From contig NZ_KB899416.1 of the NCBI RefSeq assembly GCF_000378205.1, forward strand, positions 1 through 46,749: DNA of 46,749 bases, written 5' to 3'. The position numbers and the translations under genes are program-made. The notes beneath the pieces were generated by a model. The model worked only from the letters and a program-made list of their open reading frames with translations. It had not been told where the DNA came from and did no database searches. Origin of the DNA: Sediminispirochaeta bajacaliforniensis DSM 16054 (lineage in GTDB: Bacteria; Spirochaetota; Spirochaetia; DSM-16054; Sediminispirochaetaceae). Position 1 is the stretch's first letter; every line of letters begins with the position of its first letter. Of this stretch, positions 10,668 to 26,531 are shown piece by piece.

Positions 10668-10673
10668 ATTCTG

Positions 10674-10695
10674 AAAAAGCGCCCACTAAAGGCGC
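10674..10695 (-). terminator. Rho-independent terminator of the amidohydrolase gene
   Basis: Read on the minus strand, GCGCC-TTTAGTG-GGCGC is followed by TTTTT (10674-10678). It sits 45 bp past the amidohydrolase stop, between two converging genes. Confidence 0.6.
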
Positions 10696-10720
10696 AATGG
10701 TGGTATAGAGGTGTATTTTC

Positions 10721-10742
10721 ATCACCAGGATTCGGAACACTA
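10721..10742 (-). repeat. Short dispersed motif, copy 2
   Basis: On the minus strand this reads TAGTGTTCCGAATCCTGGTG, matching the copy at 25046-25070 over 17 bases (TGTTCCGAATCCTGGTG). It includes the last bases of the amidohydrolase gene, supplying its TAG stop. Confidence 0.55.
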
Positions 10743-11942
10743 CCCCCTAATTACCACACCTCCGTGAATCACCGTTCGCCTGCTTTTCCCGCCGATGAGA
10801 GCCTCAACCGGATTGGGAGCATCTACGATTACCATATCGGCTCTACACCCCTGCTTTAGTCCATAATTCGTTATACCCATTGCCCAAGCCGGGGTTTCGG
10901 TGATCATTGCCAGCAGATCCTGGCTGCGGCTGTAGGGGTCAAGCTGGGCCACCTGAGCGGTGAGGAGCAACTCTTCAAGGGGATCTCCGTTGCCGAAGGG
11001 GCGAAAAGGGTCTCTGATGTTATCCGAGGCTACCGCCACCGGCACCCCCGCTTCAATGAGTTCTGTGATTCTGGTCGTACCCCGACGGCGATTCTTGGTA
11101 TCGCTGCGTCCCATGAGAAAAAGATTGCAGGAGGGCAGTGTTACCACATTGACGCCGGAGCTGGCAACCTTTTCGATCACTCGTGCCGCTGCATCCGCAT
11201 CCATTGCCGAAAGAGAGGTACAGTGGCCCGCCGTCACACGGCCGCCCATCCCGTATTCCATGGTTTTCTCGGCAAGATAGTCGAGGGCATCGGCATTTGC
11301 TTCCTCGCTTTCGTCCACATGCAGGTCGATAGGAAGGCCGCTTGTCTCCGCAAGACGAAAGAGTGTGTCGGTAAGCTCCCGATGATTGTTACTCAAGGTG
11401 GGACAGCCGCCGATCGCATCGGCTCCTGCTTCTATGGCTTTTTCCAATAGCTCATATACGGCATCTCCGGGAACAATCTTTTCTACGGCTCCGGGGAAGG
11501 CGACCAATTGAATCGTAATCTCATCCTTATAGTGTTCGCGTATCCTGCAGGCGCTTTCCCAGAGCTTCATGCCGGTGAAACGTTCAAGGGTAATATGGCT
11601 TCTCAGTATCGAGGTCCCGGCTTCGATCGCCATTTCAACCATGTTACAGCCGTTTTCATATAACTCCTCTTCATCGACGTTCCTGAAGTAGGCGTTCATA
11701 CTTTTAATCGCTTCTAATAGGGTGCCTGAGTAATTATGGATGCGACCGGCGGTCATTGCTTTATCAAGATGGGTGTGCATGTCGACAAAGCCGGGGAAAA
11801 CGGTTTTTCCTGAAGCATCAATAATCTTTCGGCCGGCTCCTGTGATGCGGGCAGCCTTTTCCGCAATGAATCCCTCCTTGATGCCAAGATCCATTGTTCC
11901 GTTTCCGTGAATATTACCCTGCTTGATTACTAAATCATACAT
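10740..11942 (-). CDS. Cytosine-deaminase-like metal-dependent amidohydrolase
   Basis: This is a 400-aa amidohydrolase-superfamily enzyme closest in pattern to cytosine deaminase (CodA), which hydrolyses cytosine to uracil and ammonia. Metal ligands are visible as HxH in 'GFVDMHTHLDKA', His in 'IDLHVDESEEANAD', His in 'GRVTAGHCTSLSAM' and the catalytic Asp in 'VAVASDNIRDPFRPFGNGD'. The 'LMGRSDTKNRRRGTTRI' segment parallels CodA 'LQGRFDTYPKRRGITRV'. I chose the ATG at 11942, with AAGGA 6 nt upstream, over an ATG at 11978. It is divergent, over a 75-bp gap, from a nucleoside-type ABC importer and near xanthine-dehydrogenase genes, so a role in nucleobase or related N-heterocycle salvage is likely. 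Other ring amides are possible substrates. Confidence 0.82.
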   Translation of the reverse strand: MYDLVIKQGNIHGNGTMDLGIKEGFIAEKAARITGAGRKIIDASGKTVFPGFVDMHTHLDKAMTAGRIHNYSGTLLEAIKSMNAYFRNVDEEELYENGCNMVEMAIEAGTSILRSHITLERFTGMKLWESACRIREHYKDEITIQLVAFPGAVEKIVPGDAVYELLEKAIEAGADAIGGCPTLSNNHRELTDTLFRLAETSGLPIDLHVDESEEANADALDYLAEKTMEYGMGGRVTAGHCTSLSAMDADAAARVIEKVASSGVNVVTLPSCNLFLMGRSDTKNRRRGTTRITELIEAGVPVAVASDNIRDPFRPFGNGDPLEELLLTAQVAQLDPYSRSQDLLAMITETPAWAMGITNYGLKQGCRADMVIVDAPNPVEALIGGKSRRTVIHGGVVIRG

Positions 11943-11959
11943 ATGAATCCTTAATCTTC

Positions 11960-11988
11960 TTGATGATTTCGAAAACATATAGTAATAT
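11960..11988 (+). promoter_or_regulatory. Sigma-70-type promoter of the BMP transporter operon
   Basis: TTGATG (11960-11965), a 17-bp spacer and TAATAT (11983-11988) lie 29 bp before the binding-protein start, which is preceded by AAGGAGG. The box lies in the 75-bp divergent gap shared with the amidohydrolase gene. Confidence 0.6.
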
Positions 11989-12017
11989 ACCTTTATGCAA
12001 TCTACAAGGAGGAAAAA

Positions 12018-13013
12018 ATGAAAAAAGGATTATTGTTGTTACTGGCTGTTTTACTTCTTCCCGTCGTATCTTTTGCGGAAGGACAAAAGGAGGAAGCGTC
12101 CGGTGATCAATTGAAGGTTGCGGCCCTTTTACCTGGTCCCATCAATGATGGCGGATGGAACACCAACATGTATGATTCTCTTAAGCTTATGGAAAAGGAG
12201 CTTGGTGCAAAAATTGCCTATACCGAGCGAACCCCGGCATCCGACTACGAGGAGATTTTCCGGGGCTATGCCGCAAGCGGATATAACATTGTATTCGGAC
12301 ATGGTTTTGAGTTCGGTGAACCGGCGGAAAAGGTGGCAAAAGAGTTCCCCGAGGTTACCTTTATCATCACCAGCACCAGCATAAGCCAGCCTCCCAATTT
12401 AGGTTCCTTTCTTGTCGACGATTTCCAGTGCGGATTTGTCCAGGGGGCTGTTGCGGCGATCCTCTCAAAGAGCAGAATCGTCGGTTATGTCGGTGGCATG
12501 GAGATTCCACCCATCGTGAATCAGAGCAAGGGCTTTGTCGCCGGTGCGAAGTATGTCGATAAGTCTATCGATGCCAAGGCGCTCTTGACCGGTAGTTTCG
12601 AAGACATCGCCAAGGCGAAAGAGATGTCAAAATCCCTTATTGCCGAAGGTGCCGATATCCTCGTGGCGGATGCCGACGAATCGAACCACGGTGTGATCGA
12701 GGCGGTTGAAGAGGCCGGAGCTCTCGTTATCGGAAGTTCAGGCGACATCTACGAAACAGTCCCCGATGCACGAGATGTTATCCTGACGAGCATGACCGAG
12801 AATATGCCGAAAGGTTTGACTGTTCTTGCCAAGTCGGTCGTCGACGGCACCTTTGAGGCAAAGAACTATATTATCGGTTTGCATGACGGGGCCGTTGCCC
12901 TTGCCCCGTTTCGGGATAACGCGAACCTTGTTTCCGCCGATCAAAAGGCACAGATCGATAAAATCATACAGGATCTGAGAGACGGCACCATCGATCTGAA
13001 TCAGTATAAGTAG
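12018..13013 (+). CDS. BMP/PnrA-family ABC transporter substrate-binding protein
   Basis: This is a 331-aa periplasmic binding protein of the BMP (PnrA/Med) family, whose characterised members bind purine nucleosides (Treponema TmpC/PnrA). The signal peptide is MKKGLLLLLAVLLLPVVSFA, followed by 'EGQKEEASG'. There is no lipobox Cys, so cleavage by signal peptidase I is expected. Family features include 'AALLPGPINDGGWNTNMYDSL' near the start, 'FGHGFEF', 'QCGFVQGAVAAIL', 'GYVGGMEIPP' and 'VADADESNHGVIEA'. It is first gene of an operon with two permeases and a double ATPase. The clustering with xanthine dehydrogenase and a deaminase suggests a purine or nucleobase-type ligand. Confidence 0.9.
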   Translation: MKKGLLLLLAVLLLPVVSFAEGQKEEASGDQLKVAALLPGPINDGGWNTNMYDSLKLMEKELGAKIAYTERTPASDYEEIFRGYAASGYNIVFGHGFEFGEPAEKVAKEFPEVTFIITSTSISQPPNLGSFLVDDFQCGFVQGAVAAILSKSRIVGYVGGMEIPPIVNQSKGFVAGAKYVDKSIDAKALLTGSFEDIAKAKEMSKSLIAEGADILVADADESNHGVIEAVEEAGALVIGSSGDIYETVPDARDVILTSMTENMPKGLTVLAKSVVDGTFEAKNYIIGLHDGAVALAPFRDNANLVSADQKAQIDKIIQDLRDGTIDLNQYK

Positions 13014-13028
13014 CCGTTTAATGCCTTC

Positions 13029-13057
13029 AGCCACGGAGGTGCCCAACCTCCGTGGCT
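13029..13057 (+). other. Intercistronic stem-loop
   Basis: A perfect 12-bp stem (AGCCACGGAGGT / ACCTCCGTGGCT) with a 5-nt loop lies 15 bp after the binding-protein stop, and no U-run follows. In importer operons such structures stabilise the upstream message or partially terminate, giving excess binding protein. It occludes a possible GTG start at 13052, supporting ATG 13076 for the permease. Confidence 0.65.
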
Positions 13058-13075
13058 CCCATATCGGGGAACACT

Positions 13076-14152
13076 ATGAACAGACGATTGAACACTATTC
13101 TTATGCAGTGTGTCTCTATCACTGTGGCTTTTGTCCTTGGTGCCGTCGTGATCAAAATGATCGGGATATCACCGCTTTTTGCCTATGGTGCGCTCCTTAA
13201 CGGCTCTTTCGGAAGCATCAATGCAATCGGAGAAACTCTCGTTAAGATGACGCCCCTTATCCTCACGGGCTTAAGTTACGCCTTTGCCGCCAGAGCCGGA
13301 CTTATCAACATCGGAGCGGAAGGACAGCTCTATATCGGGGGAATTTTAGCCACCCTTGTCGGCTCCAACTTTGCCGGACTGCCTATGATTATTCATGTGC
13401 CTTTTGCCGTTGCCGCTGCTTTTGCAGGCGGAGCAGTATGGGGCGGGTTGGTTGGTCTTCTCAAAGTAAAGTTTGGCGCCAATGAAATCATCACGACGGT
13501 GATGCTCAACTATATCGCCATCTATCTGGTGAGCTTTCTCGTTACCGGTCCGATGAAGGCTCCCCCGGGGACCATGCCCGAGAGCCGACCGATTCTCGAT
13601 TCGGCACACTTGGTGCGGATACTACCTGGGACAAGGCTTCATATCGGCATCTTCATTGCCATTCTTGCTCTGCTTTTTTACTATTTTTTCATATTTAAGA
13701 TGCGGCAGGGTTATGAAATGCGGGTTGTAGGGAACAACATGGAGTCGGCCCGGGCCGCGGGTATGCGACCCCAGCGTACAATGGTTCTTGCTATGCTTCT
13801 TGCCGGAGGAATGGGGGGTCTTGCAGGTGGCGTTGAGATCCTTGGAATCCAGGGACGCCTGCTGCAATCCTTTAGTCCCGGCTACGGATTCGACGGTATT
13901 GCCGTTGCTCTGGTTGGGGTGAACAACCCTGTCGGCATCGTTCTTGGAGCCTTGCTTTTCGGCTTTCTTCGAGCCGGAGGCAACAGAATGCAGCTGGTTG
14001 CCCAGGTACCGGTTTCGGTTATCTACGTCGTTCAGGGATTGGTTATTACCTTTGTGATCATCGGTCAGAATCTGCATGTTTTTCAAAAGGTCGGGGTAAA
14101 CCGCCCCTTTCGTCGGAAGACTGGGGACGGTCCTGCCCCGGAGGTGCTCTGA
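13076..14152 (+). CDS. ABC transporter permease 1 (BMP/nucleoside type, BPD_transp_2)
   Basis: This is an integral membrane permease (358 aa) of the RbsC/BPD_transp_2 family, paired with BMP-type binding proteins. It has about nine hydrophobic helices. Family signatures are 'AFAARAGLINIGAEGQLYIGG', 'ANEIITTVMLNYIAIYLVSFL' and 'GNNMESARAAGMRP', followed by 'GMGGLAGGVEILG' and 'GYGFDGIAVALVG'. I took ATG 13076 (GGGGAA upstream) instead of the GTG at 13052 inside the stem-loop. Its stop overlaps the next permease start (TGATG). The two permeases form the heterodimeric channel. Confidence 0.9.
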   Translation: MNRRLNTILMQCVSITVAFVLGAVVIKMIGISPLFAYGALLNGSFGSINAIGETLVKMTPLILTGLSYAFAARAGLINIGAEGQLYIGGILATLVGSNFAGLPMIIHVPFAVAAAFAGGAVWGGLVGLLKVKFGANEIITTVMLNYIAIYLVSFLVTGPMKAPPGTMPESRPILDSAHLVRILPGTRLHIGIFIAILALLFYYFFIFKMRQGYEMRVVGNNMESARAAGMRPQRTMVLAMLLAGGMGGLAGGVEILGIQGRLLQSFSPGYGFDGIAVALVGVNNPVGIVLGALLFGFLRAGGNRMQLVAQVPVSVIYVVQGLVITFVIIGQNLHVFQKVGVNRPFRRKTGDGPAPEVL

Positions 14153-15075
14153 TGGAACTTCTTAGTTATCTACTGGCGACCGATCTGCGAATGGCCGCTC
14201 CTATTCTCATTGCCGCTCTTGGCCTTCTTTTTATGGAAAAAAGCGGTGTAGTCAATATCGGTTGCGAGGGGATGATGCTCTTCGGGACCTTTTTCGGTGT
14301 TTTCTTTGCCCGGCTTTCAGGCTCACCCTGGATAGGCTTGCTTTTTGCCGGAATGACCGGGATGGTCATTGGCCTCTTTTTTGCATTCATTGTGGTTACC
14401 CTGCGGGCCAATCAGATTGTGACGGGGATAGCCCTAAACATCATTGCTCAGGGGGCCACCTCGACCCTGAATCGGCTTATCTTCGGCGTTTCAAGCCAGG
14501 CGGCCAATGCGCCGGGCTTTGAGGTCGTCCCTATCCCTCTGCTTTCGAAGATTCCCGTTATAGGAGATTCTCTCTTTAACCAGATGGGGCCCATCTATCT
14601 CGCTCTGCTTCTTGTTCCTTTGATCCGCTGGTTTATGATGAAGACAACCATAGGTCTGAAGATCCGTGCCGTGGGTGAACATCCCCATTCGGCCGATACC
14701 GCAGGAATAAATGTACGCTCTGTTCGCTATGGCAGCATTCTGGCAGGGTCCTTTCTCGTGGGGGCTGCCGGAGGATTCCTTTCTCTTGGGATTCTGAGCC
14801 TCTTTTCTGAAAATATGGTGAGCGGAAGAGGATATATCGCTCTGGCCGTCATCATTTTCGGGAAATGGAACTCCTGGGGAGTTCTTGCCGCCGCCCTGGT
14901 TTTTGGCCTCGGGGATGCGGTACAGATTAAGATGCAAACGGCCGGTAGTTCAATTCCCTATCAGTTTCTCATGATGCTTCCCTATATCCTGACGATTCTG
15001 GCACTTTCCGGTTTTGTCGGAAAAGCGGAATCTCCTGCAGCATCGGGGAAACCCTTTCGCAACGACGAGCTATAG
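14152..15075 (+). CDS. ABC transporter permease 2 (BMP/nucleoside type, BPD_transp_2)
   Basis: This is the second membrane subunit (307 aa) of the same importer. It has about nine hydrophobic segments and the family patterns 'LLFMEKSGVVNIGCEGMMLFG', 'RANQIVTGIALNIIAQG', 'IRAVGEHPHSADTAGINV' and 'GRGYIALAVIIFGKWNSWG'. It is translationally coupled to permease 1 (TGATG at 14150-14154) and lies 15 bp before the ATPase gene. Lengths and order match YufPQ/NupPQ-type nucleoside importers. Confidence 0.9.
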   Translation: MELLSYLLATDLRMAAPILIAALGLLFMEKSGVVNIGCEGMMLFGTFFGVFFARLSGSPWIGLLFAGMTGMVIGLFFAFIVVTLRANQIVTGIALNIIAQGATSTLNRLIFGVSSQAANAPGFEVVPIPLLSKIPVIGDSLFNQMGPIYLALLLVPLIRWFMMKTTIGLKIRAVGEHPHSADTAGINVRSVRYGSILAGSFLVGAAGGFLSLGILSLFSENMVSGRGYIALAVIIFGKWNSWGVLAAALVFGLGDAVQIKMQTAGSSIPYQFLMMLPYILTILALSGFVGKAESPAASGKPFRNDEL

Positions 15076-17364: not shown

Positions 17365-19617
17365 ATGAGAACCATCGGATCAAGCGTTCCTGTCCATGAT
17401 GCGCAGGCAAAGGTAACAGGTGCCTGCTTGTATACCGACGATTTGGAGCCTGCGGATATCCTTTATGCCAAGTTGCTTTATTCAAAAGAGGCGCATGCAA
17501 AGATTGTATCTGTCGACAGCACTGAGGCCGAGGCAATGGAAGGTGTGGTTGCCGTCCTCTCCTGCTTCAATACCACGCCGCGTTTCTACAACAGTGCCAA
17601 GCGCTTTGATGAGCAGGAGGTGCCCCAGGATGAGCAGATCTTTCCCCGAATCGTCCAGCATGTGGGCGACAGGGTTGCCGCGGTGGTTGCCGAACGTCCT
17701 GAACAGGCTTTGCGGGCCTTAAAGGCAATCAAGGTGGAATACGAGCCGCTTCCTGCTATTTTTGATCCGGAAGAGGCCCTTGCCCTGGAAGATAGTTCCG
17801 GATTATATGCGAAGATTTCGACCTCCGGCGGCGATCTCGAAGCCGGCTTCTCCCAGGCCGATGCCGTTTTCGAGGGAAGGAAAGAGACCGAGGCCATACA
17901 CCATCTCGCCTTAGAGCCCCACTCGGTGATTGCCGAATGCCGGAACGGAAAGAAAGCCACCGTCTGGACCAGTACCCAGACGACCTTTGCGGTAAGGATG
18001 CTCCTTTCCGAACTCTTCGGATTTCCCAGAAGTCGAATCAGGGTTGTTAAACCGGTCATGGGCGGTGGATTCGGTGCAAAGATACCGATGATTCTCGAAC
18101 CCGTGGCCCTTGCCGCGGCGATCAAAACCGGCAGGCCTGTTAAGCTCACCCTTTCGCGAAAAGAGGCCTTTTTTGCCACACGAATGCGGCATGCGTCCAA
18201 AACAAGGATCAAAACCGGGGTAAAGAAAGACGGTACCATTGTCGCACAGGATATCACCATACTCTTCAACGGGGGGGCTTACTGTACTCAAAGCATCAAC
18301 GTCGGTGCAGCTACGGTCCACGATATCGTAAATTGCTTCAGGACCCCCAACATCAAGGTAACGGCGCTTCCCGTGCGGACAAATCTCCCGGTTGCCGGGG
18401 CCATGCGCGGTTACGGATCGCCTCAGATGCACTTTGCCCTCCAGACCCACCTCGCCCAGGTTGCGCGGCAGTTGGGGATCGACTTTTATGCCTTTCTCGA
18501 ACGTAATCTCGTGCGCCCTGATGCGCTCTCTCCCGTGGGAGGGAGAAGTCTCGGAAACCCCAGACCCCTTGATTGTCTGCACAGGGGTGGGGAGCTATTC
18601 GGCTGGAAGGCCAAAAGCGCATTGCCCAGGGAGGTCGGAAAGAATCGCTTTCGCGGTGTCGGTATCGGGGTCGGAACCCATGGGAATGGGGTCTTCGGTG
18701 CTCATCTTGACTATACCGGTATCAGGGTCCGGATGAACGAGGACGATACGGTGCTTCTTTTTACCGGTAGTCACGATATGGGCAACGGATCGGTAACGGT
18801 CCAGAAGATGATCGTCAGCCAGGAACTCAACGTTCCTCTGGAGCGAATTGAGGCGGTGGAATCGGATACCGAAAACTGTCCCTACAACCTTGGCGACTAT
18901 GCCAGCCGCGGCGTCTTTGTCTCTGCCGAGGCGGCAAGGAGGGCAGCCATTTCTCTGCGGGCTTTAATCCTCGAAAAGGGAGGGGGCCTGACCGGTCGCC
19001 CTTCGGCAGAGCTCTCCTTGGGGACCGAGGCCCTTTTGGGAGCTGATGGAAAGGCCCTTATGAGCCGGAAGGATCTGTTTCGGCGGATCAATCAGGAGTT
19101 GCAGCAGGATCTGGAGGTAACCGAAAGCTGGGCGAATGCGGCGGGACGTACCTCCTACGGCGTCCATTTTGCCGAGGTTGAGGTCGACGGTAACAGCGGG
19201 GAGGTTGATATCCTCTCCTACGTGGCGGTCCACGATGTGGGTAAGGTCTTGAACCGACAGGGTATTGAGGGGCAGCTCGAGGGTGGGATTCATATGTCCA
19301 CGGGCTACGCTTTGAGTGAGGAACTCCGTTTCGATGAAAAGGGTGCCGTGGTAAATGGTTCTCTCGGACGTTACAATATCATTCGTGCGAGTCGGATGCC
19401 GAAAGAGCTGATTGTCGATTTCATCGAAGAAGGGGAAGAACCTGGCCCCTACGGAGCAAAAAGTATCGGCGAATGCGCTGCTGTTCCCGGGGCTGCGGCG
19501 ATTGCCAATGCTGTTGCGGACGCCCTTGGGGTCGAGGTCGACCACATCCCCCTTACACCGAAGCGGGTACTTGCCCTCCTTTCCTTAAAGAACGGCGATG
19601 ATATATGTCCGGCTTGA
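17365..19617 (+). CDS. Xanthine dehydrogenase-family molybdopterin subunit
   Basis: This is a 750-aa molybdenum hydroxylase large subunit. These enzymes hydroxylate purines or other N-heterocycles or aldehydes with water at a Mo=O/Mo=S centre. The N-terminal domain ('VPVHDAQAKVTGACLYTDDL' region) is the aldehyde-oxidase a/b hammerhead. The Mo-cofactor part carries 'VMGGGFGAKIPMILEP', 'GAMRGYGSPQMHFAL' (substrate-side Arg) and 'GAKSIGECAAVPGAAA', with the catalytic Glu at ~703. AGGAGG precedes ATG 17365. It overlaps the next gene by 13 nt. It has no FeS or FAD domain itself, so it must borrow the 2Fe-2S domain of the following protein or another partner. Clustering with the nucleoside-type importer suggests purine substrates. 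Confidence 0.88.
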   Translation: MRTIGSSVPVHDAQAKVTGACLYTDDLEPADILYAKLLYSKEAHAKIVSVDSTEAEAMEGVVAVLSCFNTTPRFYNSAKRFDEQEVPQDEQIFPRIVQHVGDRVAAVVAERPEQALRALKAIKVEYEPLPAIFDPEEALALEDSSGLYAKISTSGGDLEAGFSQADAVFEGRKETEAIHHLALEPHSVIAECRNGKKATVWTSTQTTFAVRMLLSELFGFPRSRIRVVKPVMGGGFGAKIPMILEPVALAAAIKTGRPVKLTLSRKEAFFATRMRHASKTRIKTGVKKDGTIVAQDITILFNGGAYCTQSINVGAATVHDIVNCFRTPNIKVTALPVRTNLPVAGAMRGYGSPQMHFALQTHLAQVARQLGIDFYAFLERNLVRPDALSPVGGRSLGNPRPLDCLHRGGELFGWKAKSALPREVGKNRFRGVGIGVGTHGNGVFGAHLDYTGIRVRMNEDDTVLLFTGSHDMGNGSVTVQKMIVSQELNVPLERIEAVESDTENCPYNLGDYASRGVFVSAEAARRAAISLRALILEKGGGLTGRPSAELSLGTEALLGADGKALMSRKDLFRRINQELQQDLEVTESWANAAGRTSYGVHFAEVEVDGNSGEVDILSYVAVHDVGKVLNRQGIEGQLEGGIHMSTGYALSEELRFDEKGAVVNGSLGRYNIIRASRMPKELIVDFIEEGEEPGPYGAKSIGECAAVPGAAAIANAVADALGVEVDHIPLTPKRVLALLSLKNGDDICPA

Positions 19618-22364
19618 TTGGTGAAACGATTCACTTCCGGGTCAACGGCATTGAGCGGGAGGTGAATCCGAAACAGGGAATGAGCCTGATGCGTTATCTC
19701 CGTGAAGAGCTGGGGCTGACGGGTACAAAGTGCGGATGTCAGAGTGGTGACTGCGGCACATGCAAGGTGCTCGTGGATGGTCGGGCGGTCAATTCGTGCA
19801 CCCTTGCTCTGCGGAAACTCGAAGGCCGGGAAGTCGTTACCATCGAGGGGCTTGCCCCCGATGCCACCCGTCCGGGAAGTACCCTTCATCCCGTCCAGCA
19901 GGCCTTTATCGATGCGGGGGCCATACAATGCGGTTTCTGTACGCCGGGGATGATTATCACCACGGTGGCCCTTCTGTCCCGTAACCCCGACCCTTCTTCT
20001 GGTGAAATACGCAAAGCCCTCGATGGAAACCTGTGTCGCTGCACCGGATATCGAAAGATTGTCGATGCTGTTTTACTGGCCGCGCGGTATATGCGTGGCG
20101 GAGCACAAAACACTGAAGAAGGAGGAAGGCCGGCAGGTTCTAACACCATTGCCCTCGGAACTCCTTCTCCGGTTCGGGACGCTCGGAAAAAGGTAACCGG
20201 TCGTCTTTTGTATACCGGTGATCTCAATTTCCCCGGCATGCTGATCGGAAAAATCCTCTATGCACCGGCCGCCCACGGCCTGATTACCTCTATCGATACC
20301 AGCCGGGCAGAGGCCCTTCCCGGCGTCCGGGCTGTGGCGAGCTTTGCGAACAGTCCTGATAAGCCCTATAACAGCCATACCACCCTGCCGTTTCAGAAGG
20401 TTCCCAAAAATGAGCGCATATTCAACCGTCACTTTCGCTTTCATGGCGACAGGATCGCGGCAGTTGCCGCCGAAGATGAGGCAACTGCTCGTAAGGCCCT
20501 CGGCCTTATCGAGATTGAATGGGAACCATATCCCGCAAGTCTCACGATAGAGGATGCTCTTGCTCCTGGTGCCGAACCCATCCATGAGGGCGGAAACCTC
20601 GCCGATACCATACGTGAGGAAGGGGGAACTCCATCCCCAAAGCGGGGAGAACGGTACGAAGGTGTCTTTCGGCTGCCGAGGGTGACCCATGCCGCACTGG
20701 AACGGCACATCTCCATCTCCGATTTCGACGGCGAACGGCTTACCGTCTATTCTTCCTGCCAGAACGTCTTTTGTTACCGGGCCATGCTCGGCGAACTCTT
20801 CGAGCTGCCTCTCAATCGGGTCAGGGTTATCAAACCTGCGGTCGGAGGCGCCTTCGGGGGAAAGTCCGAGATGGTGAGTGAGCCGGTTTCCTCCCTCCTT
20901 GCTCTTATGACCGGAAGACCGGTAAAAGTGGAGCTCTCACGGAAAGAGGTTATGTGTTCAACCAGGACCAGGACCTCCGGACGAATCGAGCTTTCCATGG
21001 AAGTGGACGAGGACAACCGTTTTATATCCCACAATTATCATGCCTATCTGGATCGCGGCGCCTATTTCGGCAGTGCCTACGACCTCGGCTATGCCCTGAT
21101 GGATAAGGCCTTTCGGCTCTATCGCGTACCCAGGATCGATACCTCCGCCGCTCTCGTTTATACCAACAATCAGGCTGCCGGGGCCGTAAGAGGATATGGT
21201 AATCCCCAGATAAGCTTTGCCCGGGAGGTGCTGATCGACCGCATCTGCCGGCAAAGGGGGATCGATCCCATCGAATTCCGGATAAAAAACCTGGTCCATC
21301 CCTGGGACCGAAACCCGGCAAACGGATACTCTCTGGGCAACTGCCGGATCATCGAGTGTCTTGAACTGGGGGCCAGACTCTGCGGCTGGGAAGAAAAGCG
21401 AAAGAGATCGGATTCAGGAACCATTCGCCGGGGAATCGGCCTGGCATGCGGGGTTCACGGCTCGGGGATACACCCGGGATCGGTGGATTACTCGACGGCA
21501 GGGCTGAAGATGAATGGCGACGGAACAGCCTGCCTCTCCATTTCTGCCCATGAAAACGGTCAGGGCAGTAGCGTGGTCATGGCAAAGATCGCCGCCGAGG
21601 TCCTCGGCATTCCCGAGACCTCCATCAGTCTGGTAGAGACCGATACCGAGACCACCTGGTACGACAACGGAAGCTATGCAAGCCGGGAGACCTGGGTCTG
21701 CGGCGGTGCGGTGAAGCGGGCCGCGGAATCGGTGAAGCGGCAGCTGACCGAAGAGGCTGCTGTTATGCTTGGCTGCACGGTGGGGGAGGTTGTCGCTCAG
21801 GCGGGATGCTGCAGAAAGCGGACAGGGGGACCCGATGCTCTACTTAGCTATGGAGATATCATTACCTATGCCCGTTCTCACTACCCCTATCATGATATCA
21901 ATGCGGTGGAAAGTTACGCCTCGCCCATGGACCCCGGCTCCTATTTTGTCAACTTCGCCGAGGTCGAGGTCGATATGGAAAAGCGGACGATCAAGGTTCT
22001 CAAGGTAACCGTTGTTCACGACTGCGGCACCATCATCAACCCAATGCTTATCGAAGGACAGGTAGACGGCGGTATGCATATGGGACTCGGTTATGCCCTC
22101 TGCGAAGAGCTTCTGAGCGACCGGCAGTCGGGAAAACAGCTGACGACAAGTTTCAAGCAGTATAAGATGATTCCTCCGGAGGCTATGCCGGAGGTTGAAC
22201 TTCGGTTTCTCGGAGGAAAGGAGCCGCTTGGGCCTTTCGGCGCCAAGGGAATCGGAGAAGCCACCACTGTTGCTATTGCACCTGCGGTGGCTAATGCTGT
22301 TACTTCCGCCACCGGGTTTGAAATATCATCGTTACCGATTCGTTTTCCGGCTCTGATAAAATGA
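19605..22364 (+). CDS. Fused 2Fe-2S / molybdopterin xanthine dehydrogenase-type protein
   Basis: This is a 919-aa fusion. Residues ~8-165 are the two-cluster iron-sulfur subunit: plant-type 2Fe-2S Cys at 43, 45 (outside the canonical set), 50, 53 and 65 in 'TKCGCQSGDCGTCKVLVDG', and the all-helical 2Fe-2S domain with C109, C112, C144 and C146 ('QCGFCTPGMIITT', 'LCRCTGYRKIV'). From ~180 a full Mo-binding subunit follows, with 'AVGGAFGGKSEMVSEP', 'GAVRGYGNPQISFARE' and the catalytic Glu ~885 in 'GAKGIGEATT'. Such FeS-Mo fusions occur in selenium-dependent xanthine dehydrogenases and some aldehyde/purine hydroxylases. There is no FAD subunit gene in the window, so the electron acceptor is unclear. 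It is followed by a strong terminator. Confidence 0.88.
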   Translation: MSGLIGETIHFRVNGIEREVNPKQGMSLMRYLREELGLTGTKCGCQSGDCGTCKVLVDGRAVNSCTLALRKLEGREVVTIEGLAPDATRPGSTLHPVQQAFIDAGAIQCGFCTPGMIITTVALLSRNPDPSSGEIRKALDGNLCRCTGYRKIVDAVLLAARYMRGGAQNTEEGGRPAGSNTIALGTPSPVRDARKKVTGRLLYTGDLNFPGMLIGKILYAPAAHGLITSIDTSRAEALPGVRAVASFANSPDKPYNSHTTLPFQKVPKNERIFNRHFRFHGDRIAAVAAEDEATARKALGLIEIEWEPYPASLTIEDALAPGAEPIHEGGNLADTIREEGGTPSPKRGERYEGVFRLPRVTHAALERHISISDFDGERLTVYSSCQNVFCYRAMLGELFELPLNRVRVIKPAVGGAFGGKSEMVSEPVSSLLALMTGRPVKVELSRKEVMCSTRTRTSGRIELSMEVDEDNRFISHNYHAYLDRGAYFGSAYDLGYALMDKAFRLYRVPRIDTSAALVYTNNQAAGAVRGYGNPQISFAREVLIDRICRQRGIDPIEFRIKNLVHPWDRNPANGYSLGNCRIIECLELGARLCGWEEKRKRSDSGTIRRGIGLACGVHGSGIHPGSVDYSTAGLKMNGDGTACLSISAHENGQGSSVVMAKIAAEVLGIPETSISLVETDTETTWYDNGSYASRETWVCGGAVKRAAESVKRQLTEEAAVMLGCTVGEVVAQAGCCRKRTGGPDALLSYGDIITYARSHYPYHDINAVESYASPMDPGSYFVNFAEVEVDMEKRTIKVLKVTVVHDCGTIINPMLIEGQVDGGMHMGLGYALCEELLSDRQSGKQLTTSFKQYKMIPPEAMPEVELRFLGGKEPLGPFGAKGIGEATTVAIAPAVANAVTSATGFEISSLPIRFPALIK

Positions 22365-22470: not shown

Positions 22471-23820
22471 TTATGCCATCGGCAGCACTAAGGATCCCAC
22501 GATGACAATGCATAGAGTCAAAACAGATACTAATGCGCTACCGAGTGTGTAGGTTTTTAGCCCCCCGGTCACCGTTAGTCCTGCCAAGTTTGTCGTCACC
22601 CAGAAGCCACTGTCATTTACATGACCGATACTGATTCCTCCTGCCAAGGAGGCCAATGCGATCCATACAGGATGAATGGCAATGCTCGGCGCAACCGAAG
22701 CCATTAAGGTCATGGTTGTGATTGAAGCTACGGTACCGGACCCTTGTGCAATACGGAATATCATGGCAATACAATAACTTAACAGGATTACGATCAATCC
22801 GGCGTTGGCAGTGTGGCTAATATGTTCCACCAGGAGTGATCCTATTTGTGTTGCCTTGATGACATTACCAAAACTACCGCCGGCACCGGTAATCAACAAA
22901 ACAATTCCGGCTGCTTTGGTTGCCTCTGCTGCAGATTTGTTCATCTCATCCTTCGCCATCGATTTTGATGCTACAATGTAGGCAAAAATCACGCCAAGGA
23001 GTAGAGCGACAATCTTATTACTTATAAATGCCAAGAAACTGGGGAGTTCTCCTGTTATCGCTTTTGTTACCGTACCGCTAAGGATTAATACAATAGGTAA
23101 TATGATTGGGATGATTGAAAGACTAAATGAGGGTGCGTTTTCCCGTTCTGCTTTTCCCTTGTCGAGGTTAAATAGTTCGCTCTCGTCATTATTACTCTTC
23201 CAAAGTCCTTTATCCAGAAGCTTAAAATAGATTTTCATGGCGATAAAAACTACTATCAAGCCTATGGTTCCACCAAAAAGTACCATGATTCCCAGATCGA
23301 AGTTGAATATGCTGGCGGCTGCCAGTGGGTTAGGGGTGGGGGGAACCAAGGTATGTGCAGTTGCTGCTCCGATTACCATGGCTCCGATGATGTACGGAAA
23401 GGGCTTTTTTGTTTCTTGCACCAAGGCAAGGCCAAGTGGAATAAGAATAACAAAGGTCACATCGTAGAATACCGGTATGGAGAGCAGAAAAGCGGTGAAG
23501 CCTATTGCATAAACAGCATTTTTTTCTGATGTTGCTTTTACCAAAGTAGTAGCAATTACCTTGGCTCCGCCCGAGTCTGAAAGTAATTGGCCTAAAATCA
23601 CTCCAAAACCAATCGATAAACCGATTCCTGCCATGAGACCCCCAAAACCGGAGCCAATTTGGTTGACTGTTTCGGCTAATCCGAGTCCGGAAGCTATGCC
23701 CATATACAAGGCTCCGACAATTAAACTAATAGCAGGGTTCAGTTTTAACTTCAGGATCAATAGTAAGATTACAGCTATTGCAATAGCTAAATTTATCACC
23801 AACATAGTGGAAGATACCAT
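22471..23820 (-). CDS. GntP-family (gluconate:H+ symporter-like) permease
   Basis: This is a 449-aa membrane permease of the GntP family, importing gluconate or related hydroxy-acids such as D-glycerate with protons. It has about twelve to fourteen hydrophobic segments. Family patterns include 'LKLNPAISLIVGALYMGI', 'GFGVILGQLLSDSGGAKVIA', 'SIPVFYDVTFVILIPL', 'AATAHTLVPPTPNPLAAA', 'AQGSGTVASITTM' and 'HVNDSGFWVTTNLAGLT'. The start at 23820 is preceded by AAGGAG. It lies downstream of the reductoisomerase-like gene on the same strand, so the substrate may be a branched or 2-keto-related hydroxy acid rather than gluconate itself. Confidence 0.92.
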   Translation of the reverse strand: MVSSTMLVINLAIAIAVILLLILKLKLNPAISLIVGALYMGIASGLGLAETVNQIGSGFGGLMAGIGLSIGFGVILGQLLSDSGGAKVIATTLVKATSEKNAVYAIGFTAFLLSIPVFYDVTFVILIPLGLALVQETKKPFPYIIGAMVIGAATAHTLVPPTPNPLAAASIFNFDLGIMVLFGGTIGLIVVFIAMKIYFKLLDKGLWKSNNDESELFNLDKGKAERENAPSFSLSIIPIILPIVLILSGTVTKAITGELPSFLAFISNKIVALLLGVIFAYIVASKSMAKDEMNKSAAEATKAAGIVLLITGAGGSFGNVIKATQIGSLLVEHISHTANAGLIVILLSYCIAMIFRIAQGSGTVASITTMTLMASVAPSIAIHPVWIALASLAGGISIGHVNDSGFWVTTNLAGLTVTGGLKTYTLGSALVSVLTLCIVIVGSLVLPMA

Positions 23821-23952: not shown

Positions 23953-24936
23953 CTATTCTAATCTTTCTTTTACTCGCTCCTCGGCCTTACTCATTTCATT
24001 GTTGAACGCGGCATTACGTAGCTCTTCGAATTTCACAAGTCCGCTTTTTTGCTCTTTTTCCCATTCCGTTGCAAACATGCCTGAGGTTATTTTTTCATAC
24101 TGAGAAACAATAAATTTTTGTATGAACGACTTGTCGGTTTTTGCAAATCCGGTTAATTGTCCGAACTGGCTGGTATGAGAATGAAACGGAAGTTGCTTGA
24201 AAAGCCCGATGTCCGCCGCTTTCTCCATCATAACCGCGGGCTCTTTTGAGAGGTACATTTCCATCAGGACAGCTTCTTCTGGATGCCCCATTTCCACCTG
24301 GTACTTATACACTTCAGTAAAAACAGCATAGATCAGCGGCCATGTGGCTTGTTCCGCCATAAGATCAAGATAGGTTTCGTCGTTAAAGGTGACTTGGATC
24401 GCTCCCTTTTTGGTTGAGCCGATTGCTTTGGCCAGAGCCAAAGTAATATCCCAGGCCGAACCTGAAGAATCTTGTTGCACGGCGACAAAAGTGGGAAACC
24501 CTTCTCCGCTTTGATAGAGCTCTCTTACTCCACGTCCGATCATCCTCGGTGCCACCATGATAACATCGACTTCATCCGAAGGCTGAATATGCTTGAATGT
24601 AATATTGTAGCCGGAAGAAAAGTTGATAACGTCACCCTTTTTTAGATGAGGTGCTATCTTTTCTTCGTAAATTTGCGGTGCAACTTCATCGGGAATCAAC
24701 AGGAACAGAATGTCCGCTTTAGCAGCTGCCTCATCAATGGAAAAAACAGGAAAACCATCTTTGTTTGCAGTGTTCCAGGATTCATCATTTCTACTGCCTA
24801 CAATAACGTTTTTGATACCGGAATCACGTAAATTCAGCGCTTGCGATCTCCCCTGATTACCATATCCGATAATTGCTATCACTTTCTTTTGTACTAAATC
24901 TACGTTTGCATCTTTGTCGTAAAAAATTTTGGTCAT
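23953..24936 (-). CDS. Divergent ketol-acid reductoisomerase-like protein
   Basis: This is a 327-aa homologue of class I ketol-acid reductoisomerase (IlvC), which normally isomerises and reduces acetohydroxyacids with NAD(P)H and two Mg ions. The Rossmann motif is 'AIIGYGNQGRSQALNLRDSG' with 'VGSRNDESW', and the Mg-ligand region 'LDLMAEQATWPLIYAVF' keeps the Asp...Glu of the canonical 'DLFGEQ'. However, the later active-site segment usually reading 'SNTAEYG' is 'HSHTSQFGQL' here, and the canonical 'CGG' after 'GEQ' is lost. No ilvB, ilvN or ilvD gene is nearby; instead a GntP permease and an FCD regulator flank it. I think it acts on another 2-keto or hydroxy acid. The start at 24936 has AGGAGGAG; an upstream ATG at 24999 overlaps candidate operators. 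Confidence 0.8.
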   Translation of the reverse strand: MTKIFYDKDANVDLVQKKVIAIIGYGNQGRSQALNLRDSGIKNVIVGSRNDESWNTANKDGFPVFSIDEAAAKADILFLLIPDEVAPQIYEEKIAPHLKKGDVINFSSGYNITFKHIQPSDEVDVIMVAPRMIGRGVRELYQSGEGFPTFVAVQQDSSGSAWDITLALAKAIGSTKKGAIQVTFNDETYLDLMAEQATWPLIYAVFTEVYKYQVEMGHPEEAVLMEMYLSKEPAVMMEKAADIGLFKQLPFHSHTSQFGQLTGFAKTDKSFIQKFIVSQYEKITSGMFATEWEKEQKSGLVKFEELRNAAFNNEMSKAEERVKERLE

Positions 24937-24975
24937 GAAACGCTCTCCTCCTATTCGTTGTTTCGTGTTTTGTTG

Positions 24976-25004
24976 ATCAGATATCATAAAATCAGACATC
25001 TGAT
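24976..25004. promoter_or_regulatory. Tandem ATCAGA-N2-TCTGAT-like sites, candidate FCD-regulator operator
   Basis: ATCAGACATCTGAT (24991-25004) is a 6-bp inverted repeat with a 2-bp centre. A related half-conserved copy ATCAGATATCATAA lies at 24976-24989, 15 bp upstream. They sit 40-68 bp before the reductoisomerase-like start on the minus strand, where a repressor of the GntR/FCD class encoded at 25839 could act. Confidence 0.4.
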
Positions 25005-25070: not shown

Positions 25071-25229
25071 ATGGCGTTATTTTATGCCAATGCTTGCGTT
25101 TTCATGGTACGCCTTTCGATAGTGGTATCGTGGTTAACTTTTACACCGACATATAGGCAGCTATGACTTTACCTATATGCTGCAAACAATTAATATGACG
25201 TTAATAATAGGACAAAAGGGGGAAATCTT

Positions 25230-25736
25230 TTGCGCTTAGCTGATAGTGTGTTGCAAAATGTACCGCGCATGATGAGCCAGATGAGTGCCGGTGGCCTCTT
25301 TCTTACCACGAAAACGAAGAAATTAAATACGATGGTCATCGGATGGGGAGGAGTTAATGTTTACTTTCGTATCCCAATATTTATCGTGCCTGTTCGATAC
25401 TCTCGATATACGCATGAGCAGATGGAAGAGTCGCAATACTTTACCGTCAGTGTACCACGTGCCGGTTCATTAAAACATGCATTAGCATTTTGCGGATCGA
25501 AGTCGGGAAGGGACTTTGACAAGTTTACAGAGTGCAATTTAACTCCTCTTCCCGGAAGGCTCGTGGATGTTCCGATCGTCGGAGAGTGTCCTTTGCACTA
25601 TGAATGCGAAATTATGTATAAGCAGCACATGGTTCCTGAAAATTTGAACGGAACACTCGATGCAGAGGTCTATCCGGATTCCGATTACCATACATTTTAT
25701 TTTGGAAAGATTCTTTCATGCTATGTGAATGACTGA
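25230..25736 (+). CDS. Flavin-reductase-like FMN-binding protein
   Basis: This is a 168-aa single-domain protein of the FMN-binding split-barrel (flavin reductase-like) family. Recognisable parts are 'GLFLTTKTKKLNTMVIGWG' (the usual 'lvTt...g..N.mti.W' strand), 'PIFIVPVRYSRYTHEQMEES' with 'YFTVSVP', and 'HTFYFGKILSCYV' at the end. It probably binds FMN and acts as an NAD(P)H:flavin oxidoreductase or redox partner. The start is TTG 25230, placed 7 nt after AAAAGGGGGA; no ATG gives the complete N-terminal strand. It lies divergent from the reductoisomerase-like gene and ahead of the FCD regulator. Only a weak GACT/AGTC hairpin with TTTTT follows it (25731-25746). Confidence 0.8.
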   Translation: MRLADSVLQNVPRMMSQMSAGGLFLTTKTKKLNTMVIGWGGVNVYFRIPIFIVPVRYSRYTHEQMEESQYFTVSVPRAGSLKHALAFCGSKSGRDFDKFTECNLTPLPGRLVDVPIVGECPLHYECEIMYKQHMVPENLNGTLDAEVYPDSDYHTFYFGKILSCYVND

Positions 25737-25838: not shown

Positions 25839-26531
25839 ATGGATAGTAATAGTTGGTTATCAAATCCAGTTGAGAAGGGTTCGGTTTCCAGGATTGTTTT
25901 AGAGAGAATTAAAGAAGCATTAATAAATAAACAGTTGCGGCCGGGAGATTTCCTACCGACGGAGAACGAGCTTGCGAAGGGTTTTGGAGTAGGAAAGTCC
26001 AGTATAAGAGAAGCGATTAAAATGCTGGAAGCCATGGGAGTGGTAGAGATCAGGCGGGGCCAGGGAACTGTCATACGCGAACATCCGGATCAACATAATG
26101 TTAATTCATTGGTTTTTCAGTTGCTTCTTCAGGAAGGTGATGTTCAGGAGTTGATAGATCTCCGGGCAATGTTTGAGGTTTCATATACCACAGTGGCCAT
26201 GCATAGGGCCACTGTGGAAGATTTGCAAGCAATTAAGCTGACAATCAACGATTTTGAAGCTAAAATAAAAAAGGGAGAGCATGAACTGGAAGATGACCTT
26301 GCTTTCCATCGTGCAATTTTAGCGAGTACTCATAACGTTTATATCATCAAGATTGGCGAAACGATTTTGCAACTTTTTCGCTCATCAATTCGTAAATCGG
26401 TAGCTCAAACGCCAGAAATCGCTTTAGATGATCATAAAAGGATATTCAAGGCTTTTTGCGAAAAAGATGAAACAGCAATCAAGACGATTATTTATGATAC
26501 ATTAGAGCGATGGCGCGAAAATCTTAGTTAG
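25839..26531 (+). CDS. FadR/GntR-family regulator with FCD domain
   Basis: This is a 230-aa regulator. The N-terminal winged helix is 'LRPGDFLPTENELAKGFGVG' then 'SSIREAIKMLEAMGVVEIRR', followed by a helical FCD ligand domain with candidate metal-site residues in 'DLAFHRAILASTHN' and 'DDHKRIFKAFCEKD'. FCD regulators of this type commonly sense sugar acids or hydroxy acids. Its location beside a GntP permease and a reductoisomerase-like enzyme on the opposite strand makes those genes the likely targets. A short GGGG precedes ATG 25839. A good terminator follows. Confidence 0.87.
   Translation: MDSNSWLSNPVEKGSVSRIVLERIKEALINKQLRPGDFLPTENELAKGFGVGKSSIREAIKMLEAMGVVEIRRGQGTVIREHPDQHNVNSLVFQLLLQEGDVQELIDLRAMFEVSYTTVAMHRATVEDLQAIKLTINDFEAKIKKGEHELEDDLAFHRAILASTHNVYIIKIGETILQLFRSSIRKSVAQTPEIALDDHKRIFKAFCEKDETAIKTIIYDTLERWRENLS

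What the first reader, a model, noticed from the sequence alone, without database searches (positions are those of the whole stretch)
23953..24936. Reductoisomerase homologue with altered active site in a sugar-acid-type cluster
Mg-ligand Asp/Glu are kept, but the 'SNTAEYG' region is 'HSHTSQFG', and the neighbours are a GntP permease, a flavin-reductase-like protein and an FCD regulator, not ilv genes. It may be a new ketol-isomerase/reductase for a C4-C6 keto acid in a catabolic path.
Basis: partly seen in the sequence, partly recalled or inferred. Interest (0 to 1): 0.5.

Follow-up and report, generated by a model that had tools for sequence, protein, structure and literature searches.

The report
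Catabolic relative of ketol-acid reductoisomerase
The gene looks like the valine/isoleucine-making enzyme IlvC but belongs to a separate, widespread branch with an altered active site and sits beside an acid importer and its own regulator, so it probably helps a spirochaete use a small sugar acid rather than make amino acids.

Summary
Confirmed: 23953-24936 (-) encodes a 327-aa KARI-fold protein with Mg ligands kept and HSHTSQFG for SNTAEYG, among GntP, flavin-reductase-like and GntR/FCD genes. The host has a canonical ilv locus elsewhere; a 99%-complete related spirochaete has only the variant and no acetolactate synthase hit. FCD and KARI-like genes recur together in Spirochaetota and Bacillota, often with GntP, and share a palindromic operator (15 of 15 upstream regions with FCD nearby, 0 of 9 without); its only exact copy in the host genome is this promoter. 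Best reading: an inducible, probably NAD(H)-linked KARI-type (oxido)isomerase/reductase for a small polyhydroxy acid. The substrate is unproven; some neighbourhoods elsewhere in the clade point to C3-C4 sugar acids (glycerate, threonate), but most tested loci gave no such hit. Sso-KARI, a clade member, has solved structures, so the branch is not unknown; its physiological role is. New variant of a known kind.

The parts
23953..24936 (-). KARI-like (oxido)isomerase/reductase, 327 aa; variant clade with S108, R131, D51, E226-x5-E232, HSHTSQFG
   Evidence: Pfam KARI_N and KARI_C; alignment and residue counts; tree; AlphaFold2 pLDDT 96.9, Foldseek best Sso-KARI
22471..23820 (-). GntP-family permease, downstream of the KARI-like gene on the same strand; presumed importer of the substrate
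   Evidence: Pfam GntP_permease 320.1 bits; homologue near 8 of 89 variant loci
25839..26531 (+). GntR/FCD regulator, presumed to bind the operator
   Evidence: Pfam GntR and FCD; homologue within 2.4 kb in 15 of 89 variant loci
24991..25004 (-). operator-like palindrome ATCAGATGTCTGAT; a second half-site at 24976-24985
   Evidence: k-mer enrichment, inverted repeats, scoring of 24 upstream regions, genome scan
24943..24952 (-). ribosome-binding site (AGGAGGAGAG) of the KARI-like gene
   Evidence: read from the sequence
25230..25736 (+). small flavin-reductase-like protein; possible accessory part, a homologue also lies near the gene in L049/L126 and L125
   Evidence: Pfam Flavin_Reduct 56.9 bits

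Best explanation
The gene encodes a member of a deep, non-canonical branch of the KARI family that has been moved from branched-chain amino acid synthesis to the use of an external small hydroxy acid. An FCD regulator senses the acid (or a product) and acts at the palindromic operator upstream of the KARI-like gene; GntP brings the acid in; the enzyme binds it through two Mg ions as KARI does and, with NAD(H) rather than NADPH, interconverts a 2,3-dihydroxy acid and a 2-hydroxy-3-oxo acid, with H or a hydroxymethyl group in place of the methyl/ethyl that migrates in the IlvC reaction. The product joins central metabolism through housekeeping enzymes, which would explain why the unit is so small. 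Shown here: clade, residue changes, recurring operon, shared operator, separateness from ilv genes. Inferred: NAD(H) preference, polar substrate, regulator-operator pairing, direction. Guessed: the substrate. The two best candidates are C3 (tartronate semialdehyde or hydroxypyruvate to D-glycerate, which has the same 2R configuration as the KARI product) and C4 (threonate/erythronate to 3-oxo-tetronate, which loses CO2 to dihydroxyacetone); both are chemistry by analogy.
For: (1) Phylogeny: 86 variant rows split from canonical and class II KARIs at 100/100 with a stem of 1.21; the window lies in a 22-row Bacillota/Spirochaetota subclade (100/97). (2) Active site, window numbering: R131 86/86 (canonical K 9/9), S108 71/86 (canonical H 9/9), H252 84/86 (canonical I/V), S256 83/86 (canonical A), Q257 83/86 (canonical E), D51 in the cofactor loop 82/86 (canonical S/G); D191 85/86, E195 86/86, E226 85/86, E232 86/86, S253 86/86 kept; two-residue insertion between E226 and E232 in 86/86. 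In BurG, a KARI-fold enzyme, Asn48 and Asp51 shut out the NADP phosphate and NAD+ is used (PMC9359912, passages). (3) Separate from ilv genes: of 21 genomes checked, 12 hold a canonical class I copy; it lies within about 6 kb of ilvB and/or ilvD in 7 of 12, the variant in 0 of 12. ilvB within 6 kb of the variant in 1 of 89 loci, ilvD in 0 of 89 (47 of 89 have full 6-kb flanks). (4) G036, 99% complete, has the variant as its only KARI and no acetolactate synthase match. (5) Operon: window-type FCD homologue near 15 of 89 loci, GntP near 8 of 89, all in the window's subclade or (L124, L125) 62-67% identical to it; L043/G036 repeats FCD-KARI-GntP. (6) Operator: ATCAGAT in 13 of 15 upstream regions against at most 8 in 50 shuffles; best match 11-14 of 14 in 15 of 15 regions with FCD nearby, 8-10 in 9 of 9 without; one exact copy in the 4.57-Mb draft host genome, this promoter, none for the reversed control; the three 1-mismatch host copies lie inside ORFs. 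(7) Neighbours elsewhere in the clade: HpcH/HpaI aldolase 28 bp upstream in G008; enolase-superfamily dehydratases, APH-family kinase and enolase in Haladaptatus L128 and Halomarina L129, with a GarL-like aldolase 2.9 kb off in L128; glycerate kinases near L050 and in Sulfitobacter L131, which also has an FCD regulator; threonate-kinase-like DUF1537 in L060 and L066, with PdxA and TRAP in L066.
Against: The clade includes Sso-KARI, which I recall as active on acetolactate in vitro with NADH and NADPH, and whose structures hold NADPH and the ligand CPD (titles), so the changed residues need not abolish IlvC activity. One His-keeping member outside the window's subclade, L083, lies beside ilvB and ilvN. 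Neighbour evidence is thin and mixed: 53 of 89 loci gave no hit to my 28 reference proteins, no background rate was computed, and most named neighbours score under NCBIfam equivalog cut-offs. The glycerate link: of the three testable relatives L050, L051 and L052 only L050 has the kinase next door (L057 ends too soon); genome-wide glycerate kinase occurs in 20 of 26 carrier or near-carrier genomes against 74 of 150 in one family; L107 has a GarR-like gene beside aldolase and KARI. GntP is missing next to several subclade members with FCD (L039, L040, L050, L051, L052, L124). Operator-like sites with one mismatch also occur elsewhere in other carriers (for example 9 in G392, 6 each in G062 and G066, the KARI promoter's own included); I looked at three of those and all lie in ORFs.
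Confidence: 0.66

Rival explanations
1. A plain NADH-dependent reductase: the enzyme has lost the isomerase step and simply reduces a small keto acid (hydroxypyruvate, tartronate semialdehyde) to D-glycerate, filling the place of GarR.
For: BurG reduces hydroxypyruvate to glycerate at a rate its authors liken to other KARIs (PMC9359912, passages). GarL-like aldolase, APH-family kinase and enolase lie near the gene in Haladaptatus; Halomarina has kinase and enolase; glycerate kinases lie near L050 and in L131. The canonical Lys and, mostly, His are replaced.
Against: The ligands of both Mg ions are kept in nearly all members, which simple reduction would hardly need. L107 has a GarR-like gene beside the pair. 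The minimal GntP operon has no aldolase to make such a substrate.
Confidence: 0.25
2. Reverse KARI on a branched sugar acid, for example D-apionate to 3-oxo-isoapionate, with a hydroxymethyl group migrating.
For: D-apionate is the KARI product with both methyls hydroxylated (chemistry, from knowledge); the pocket is more polar; a D-apionate oxidoisomerase, EC 1.1.1.421, is known (PMC11747546, passage); L059 has SDR, KARI and a gluconolactonase-like gene in a row.
Against: No apiose-pathway model was among the NCBIfam hits of the KARI (whether the library holds one for this enzyme is unknown to me); OiaK-model scores on the DUF1537 neighbours are far below cut-off. The known oxidoisomerase could not be compared: its paper is not held.
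Confidence: 0.1
3. A second, bona fide acetolactate reductoisomerase that serves branched-chain amino acid synthesis or salvage under special conditions.
For: TIGR00465 over cut-off; same fold, Z 38.3 and rmsd 1.4 over 322 residues to Sso-KARI 6jd2; L083 lies beside ilvB and ilvN.
Against: Host has canonical ilv genes together on C8; G036 has no acetolactate synthase match; FCD/GntP linkage and shared operator.
Confidence: 0.12

Closest known systems
Sso-KARI, 'putative ketol-acid reductoisomerase 2' of Saccharolobus solfataricus (PDB 6jcv, 6jcz, 6jd2)
   Same: Same clade; SGYN, PRMxG, E-x5-E and HSxTSQYG all shared; 42-43% identity, best Foldseek hit.
   Different: Archaeal; described (from memory) as an acetolactate KARI in vitro; its genome context and physiological role were not tested here.
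Canonical class I KARI (IlvC)
   Same: Fold, domains, Mg ligands, substrate Ser.
   Different: Lys131, His108, cofactor loop, Mg-ligand spacing, SNTAEYG and ilv linkage all differ.
BurG cyclopropanol synthase (KARI family)
   Same: KARI fold turned to another task, NAD+ used, oxidises its dihydroxy-acid substrate transiently, reduces hydroxypyruvate (PMC9359912, passages).
   Different: 32-33% identity; natural-product pathway; its sequence was not in my tree.
D-apionate oxidoisomerase (EC 1.1.1.421)
   Same: Would be the same overall chemistry (NAD+ oxidation plus carbon migration in a sugar acid).
   Different: Sequence not compared; I recall it as belonging to another family; source paper not held.
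GarR tartronate semialdehyde reductase in the GarL-GarR-GarK route (recalled)
   Same: Possible same place in a pathway with an HpaI/GarL-type aldolase (L037, L128).
   Different: HIBADH-type enzyme without Mg chemistry (recalled).

Membership tests
KARI family (fold and domains) | KARI_N and KARI_C domains over Pfam cut-offs | tested here: met
   212.3 and 68.1 bits
KARI family (fold and domains) | KARI fold | tested here: met
   AlphaFold2 pLDDT 96.9; Z 36-39 over 320-326 residues for the top 36 rows, all KARI-family entries
KARI family (fold and domains) | two-Mg ligands Asp, Glu, Glu, Glu and substrate Ser | tested here: met
   D191, E195, E226, E232, S253
IlvC equivalog (acetolactate reductoisomerase) | active-site Lys of APKxPG and His of HGF (roles recalled from KARI literature) | tested here: not met
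   R131 and S108; canonical K and H in 9 of 9
IlvC equivalog (acetolactate reductoisomerase) | score over NCBIfam equivalog cut-offs | tested here: inconclusive
   over TIGR00465 (252.5 against 226.15), under PRK05479 (274.3 against 336)
IlvC equivalog (acetolactate reductoisomerase) | groups inside the canonical clade | tested here: not met
   100/100 split
IlvC equivalog (acetolactate reductoisomerase) | linked to ilvB, ilvN or ilvD | tested here: not met
   window neighbours; ilvB near 1 of 89, ilvD near 0 of 89 variant loci
IlvC equivalog (acetolactate reductoisomerase) | acetolactate activity | not testable with these tools
   needs the protein
Sso-KARI-type variant clade | R131, D51, E-x5-E, HSxTSQ(Y/F)G | tested here: met
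BurG-type cyclopropanol synthase | groups with BurG | not tested
   BurG sequence was not in the tree; structural hit at 32-33% identity only
D-apionate oxidoisomerase | homology to the characterised enzyme | not tested
   paper not held, sequence not available

The most novel reading that the evidence does not exclude
A whole, widespread branch now annotated ilvC is a family of catabolic NAD+-dependent oxidoisomerases for polyhydroxy acids: the KARI alkyl shift has become a hydride or hydroxymethyl shift, so that one enzyme does the work of the separate dehydrogenase and isomerase in known threonate/erythronate or glucarate routes, and a three-part unit (FCD sensor, GntP importer, KARI) is a minimal sugar-acid pathway.
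Probability: 0.35. Interest if true: 0.68.

Novelty: new variant of a known kind. Interest (0 to 1): 0.5.

Why it matters
Genes of this branch in Bacteria and Archaea are called ilvC and credited with isoleucine/valine synthesis (for example the GO terms on the four annotated records). If they are catabolic, amino-acid prototrophy is over-called from genomes, a known fold gains a new physiological role, and the clade-wide changes give engineers a natural set of probably NADH-type KARI scaffolds with a polar pocket. The operator, with one exact copy in the host genome, makes the inducer, and so the substrate, directly findable.

Tried and rejected
Rejected: (a) duplicate biosynthetic IlvC, because of the ilv locus elsewhere, G036 and the operon. 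(b) IlvD in G036 as proof of a BCAA route: its hit is under the TIGR00110 cut-off (575.4 against 618.15 bits) and a KDPG/KHG aldolase lies in the same run of genes. (c) Glycerate kinase linkage as proof of a glycerate product: not conserved in L051 and L052 and common in one background family; kept only as a lead. (d) GntP subtype as a substrate clue: the three proteins scanned score below every NCBIfam cut-off listed. (e) LarA neighbours as a clue (8 of 89 loci): several NPN groups; those of L050 and L051 pass the lactate racemase cut-off, so perhaps another pathway. (f) Larger samples gave few new loci, the centre genome counted in each: 5 of 397 in the family of G062 at E<=1e-100, 1 of 400 in that of G071 and 3 of 394 in that of G093 at E<=1e-90. 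(g) Literature: searches for KARI with Sulfolobus solfataricus, apionate, GntP, nickel-pincer, ilvC plus Saccharolobus, tartronate semialdehyde, sugar acid plus paralog, threonate and for oxidoisomerase and D-apiose listed no title or abstract start on a catabolic KARI clade; the lists were capped (for example 10 of 675) and most subscription journals are not held, so this is not proof of absence.

Papers: passages only of PMC9359912, PMC4353338 (its authors suggest the dehydrogenating direction for promiscuous Streptomyces KARI copies), PMC11747546, PMC6302742, PMC8615647, PMC13430628, PMC12611868, PMC10444878 (no mention of KARI); outline and passages of PMC5940873. Carter 2018 (D-apiose) was not held and is recalled, as is the Sso-KARI enzymology.

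Caveats on counts: the 86 variant rows are 80 loci plus window, L002, L005, L006, L007 and PDB 6jcv; L005 and L043 are the same genome (identical) and there are further near-duplicates. The 80 loci were the best of 551 confirmed by tblastn, found with the patterns YGNQGR[SA]Q or the N-terminus, which do not cover the residues counted. The 89 loci are the 80 plus window, L034, L037, L124, L125 and L128-L131. The operator was found and scored on the same 15 regions, with simple letter shuffles, so the 9 regions without FCD and the genome scan are the controls. Neighbour ORFs were called by a mechanical script and many were named by eye unless a family search is cited. After the submission check I ran and mended the score range of regions without FCD (8-10), the place of the Haladaptatus aldolase, the wording on the 551 relatives and several capped or by-eye statements; confidence in the best explanation went from 0.68 to 0.66 for the thinner neighbour evidence.

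Full report
What is there. The gene at 23953-24936 (-) is a 327-residue, class I-sized KARI-family protein: KARI_N and KARI_C both pass Pfam cut-offs, and it passes one NCBI ilvC model but not the stricter one. Downstream on the same strand lies a GntP permease; divergently upstream lie a flavin-reductase-like gene and a GntR/FCD regulator.

Not the IlvC of this organism. The host genome (4.57 Mb, 75 contigs) has three KARI genes: a canonical one on contig C8 (220 bits, SNTAEYG) with an IlvH/N-like ORF (by eye), ilvB and ilvD beside it, a second variant on C15 (HSTTSQYG) and the window's. G036 is in the same class as the host and its contig is that of the named 'uncultured Spirochaetales' record L043 (same length and same protein), which places the window in a spirochaete.

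The clade. In a tree of 101 rows, 86 variant rows, all 80 among them, split from canonical and class II sequences with 100/100 support and a long stem (1.21); the window is in a 22-row subclade of Bacillota and Spirochaetota (100/97), nearest by path to a Christensenella MAG, and Sso-KARI is inside the wider variant clade. The gene is rare and patchy in the families sampled: 5 of 397, 1 of 400 and 3 of 394 genomes, each including the genome used as centre, with different queries and E limits.

The active site (window numbering). Against 9 canonical sequences, the 86 variant rows keep D191 (85), E195 (86), E226 (85), E232 (86) and S253 (86), but have R131 for Lys (86), S108 for His (71; 13 keep H, 2 have T), H252 for I/V (84), S256 for Ala (83), Q257 for Glu (83) and D51 in the cofactor loop (82); E226 and E232 are six apart in 86 of 86, the canonical pair four apart in 9 of 9. 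The roles of the Lys, the His and the pocket residues are recalled from the KARI literature. An Asp in this loop in BurG excludes the NADP phosphate (PMC9359912, passages), so NAD(H) use is a fair inference; the polar pocket suggests a polar migrating group. The AlphaFold2 model (pLDDT 96.9, 63 sequences) is a standard KARI fold: Foldseek puts Sso-KARI first; VIA-align gives Z 39.0 to 8ep7 (rmsd 1.5, 323 residues) and 38.3 to 6jd2 (rmsd 1.4, 322 residues), which are tied.

Not driven by acetolactate supply. Of 21 genomes checked for ilvB and ilvD, 12 have a canonical class I copy; in 7 of these it lies within about 6 kb of ilvB and/or ilvD, the variant in none. G036 (99% complete) has the variant as its only KARI and no acetolactate synthase match. 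G071 shows the same, with unknown completeness.

The operon and its switch. Window-type FCD homologues lie near the gene in 15 of 89 loci and GntP in 8 of 89, all in the window's subclade or, for L124 and L125, 62-67% identical to it. FCD-KARI-GntP stands in that order in L042, L043 and L044 (spirochaetes) and in L041 and L045 (Faecalicatena). In G392 (L125) and Treponema socranskii (L049/L126) an SDR (gluconate-5-dehydrogenase-like, under cut-off, scanned for L125) and a flavin-reductase-like gene join. Counting a second FCD type (the Sulfitobacter one, FCD domain confirmed), 20 of 89 loci have such a regulator nearby. Upstream of the gene, 7-mer ATCAGAT occurs in 13 of 15 regions (shuffles: mean best 6, maximum 8). 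The 14-mer ATCAGATGTCTGAT is matched at 11-14 positions in 15 of 15 regions with an FCD gene nearby and at 8-10 in 9 of 9 without. In the host genome it occurs once exactly, at 24991-25004; three copies with one mismatch lie inside ORFs; the reversed control pattern has none in 11 genomes. In the host the regulator therefore seems to serve this one promoter, which would mean that transport plus this enzyme suffice with housekeeping enzymes. Other carriers hold further one-mismatch sites (up to 9 in all, in G392), of which I looked at three, all in ORFs.

What it acts on. Informative contexts elsewhere in the clade are of the sugar-acid kind: on Haladaptatus and Halomarina plasmids annotated mandelate racemase/muconate lactonizing-family genes, an APH-family kinase and enolase, and in Haladaptatus a GarL-like aldolase 2.9 kb away; in G008 an HpcH/HpaI aldolase 28 bp upstream and an NPN isomerase (group 22), a TIM-barrel protein and DhaK/DhaL downstream; in Sulfitobacter an FCD regulator, TRAP, aldehyde dehydrogenase and a MOFRL-type glycerate kinase; in Halanaerobium threonate-kinase-like DUF1537, PdxA and TRAP genes; in Alicyclobacillus DUF1537; in the host's C15 copy an FCD regulator, TctC, TctA, Fe-ADH and a galactonate-dehydratase-like enzyme. 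These agree on small polyhydroxy acids but not on one compound; most score under the equivalog cut-offs; and 53 of 89 loci gave no hit to the 28 reference proteins (47 of 89 have full flanks). Tartronate semialdehyde is the smallest possible ketol acid (H for both methyls of acetolactate), and tetronates or apionate are the next steps up; this is chemistry by analogy, not data.

Against. Sso-KARI is, as I recall, active on acetolactate; a His-keeping member lies beside ilvB and ilvN (L083); the glycerate lead is not conserved among close relatives and its genome-wide co-occurrence is modest (20 of 26 against 74 of 150). By contrast the 35%-identical plasmid hit H9 is a plain IlvC between ilvB and ilvD, which shows what a canonical neighbourhood looks like.

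Verdict. Observation confirmed and widened; interpretation partly supported. A new variant of a known kind: a KARI-family, non-IlvC enzyme in what looks like an inducible acid-uptake unit.

Noticed in passing
G000 contig C15:11052-12065 (L034): Second variant KARI of the same genome, beside an FCD regulator, TctC/TctA, Fe-ADH and a galactonate-dehydratase-like enzyme: a separate sugar-acid cluster.
   Followed up: partly
window 17365-22364: Two long ORFs that look like xanthine-dehydrogenase-type molybdenum subunits, the second with an N-terminal 2Fe-2S part (by eye).
   Followed up: no
L083 (archaeal MAG) 10001-14279: A variant KARI that keeps the active-site His lies just upstream of ilvB and ilvN, and the genome's canonical IlvC lies about 4 kb away on the same contig: a possible intermediate between biosynthetic and catabolic forms.
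   Followed up: partly
L046 2496-9726 (L047 similar): Variant KARI between a glycyl-radical enzyme with an activase-like gene and a molybdopterin oxidoreductase; the L046 radical enzyme is below all NCBIfam cut-offs listed.
   Followed up: partly
L133 (G000 C1:358000-374000): Another FCD-GntP unit of the host, this one with a glycerate kinase about 0.7 kb on, so a GntP-type permease is tied to glycerate in this genome.
   Followed up: partly
window 25150-25179: A second perfect inverted repeat CATATAGG/CCTATATG in the same intergenic region, nearer the flavin-reductase gene.
   Followed up: no
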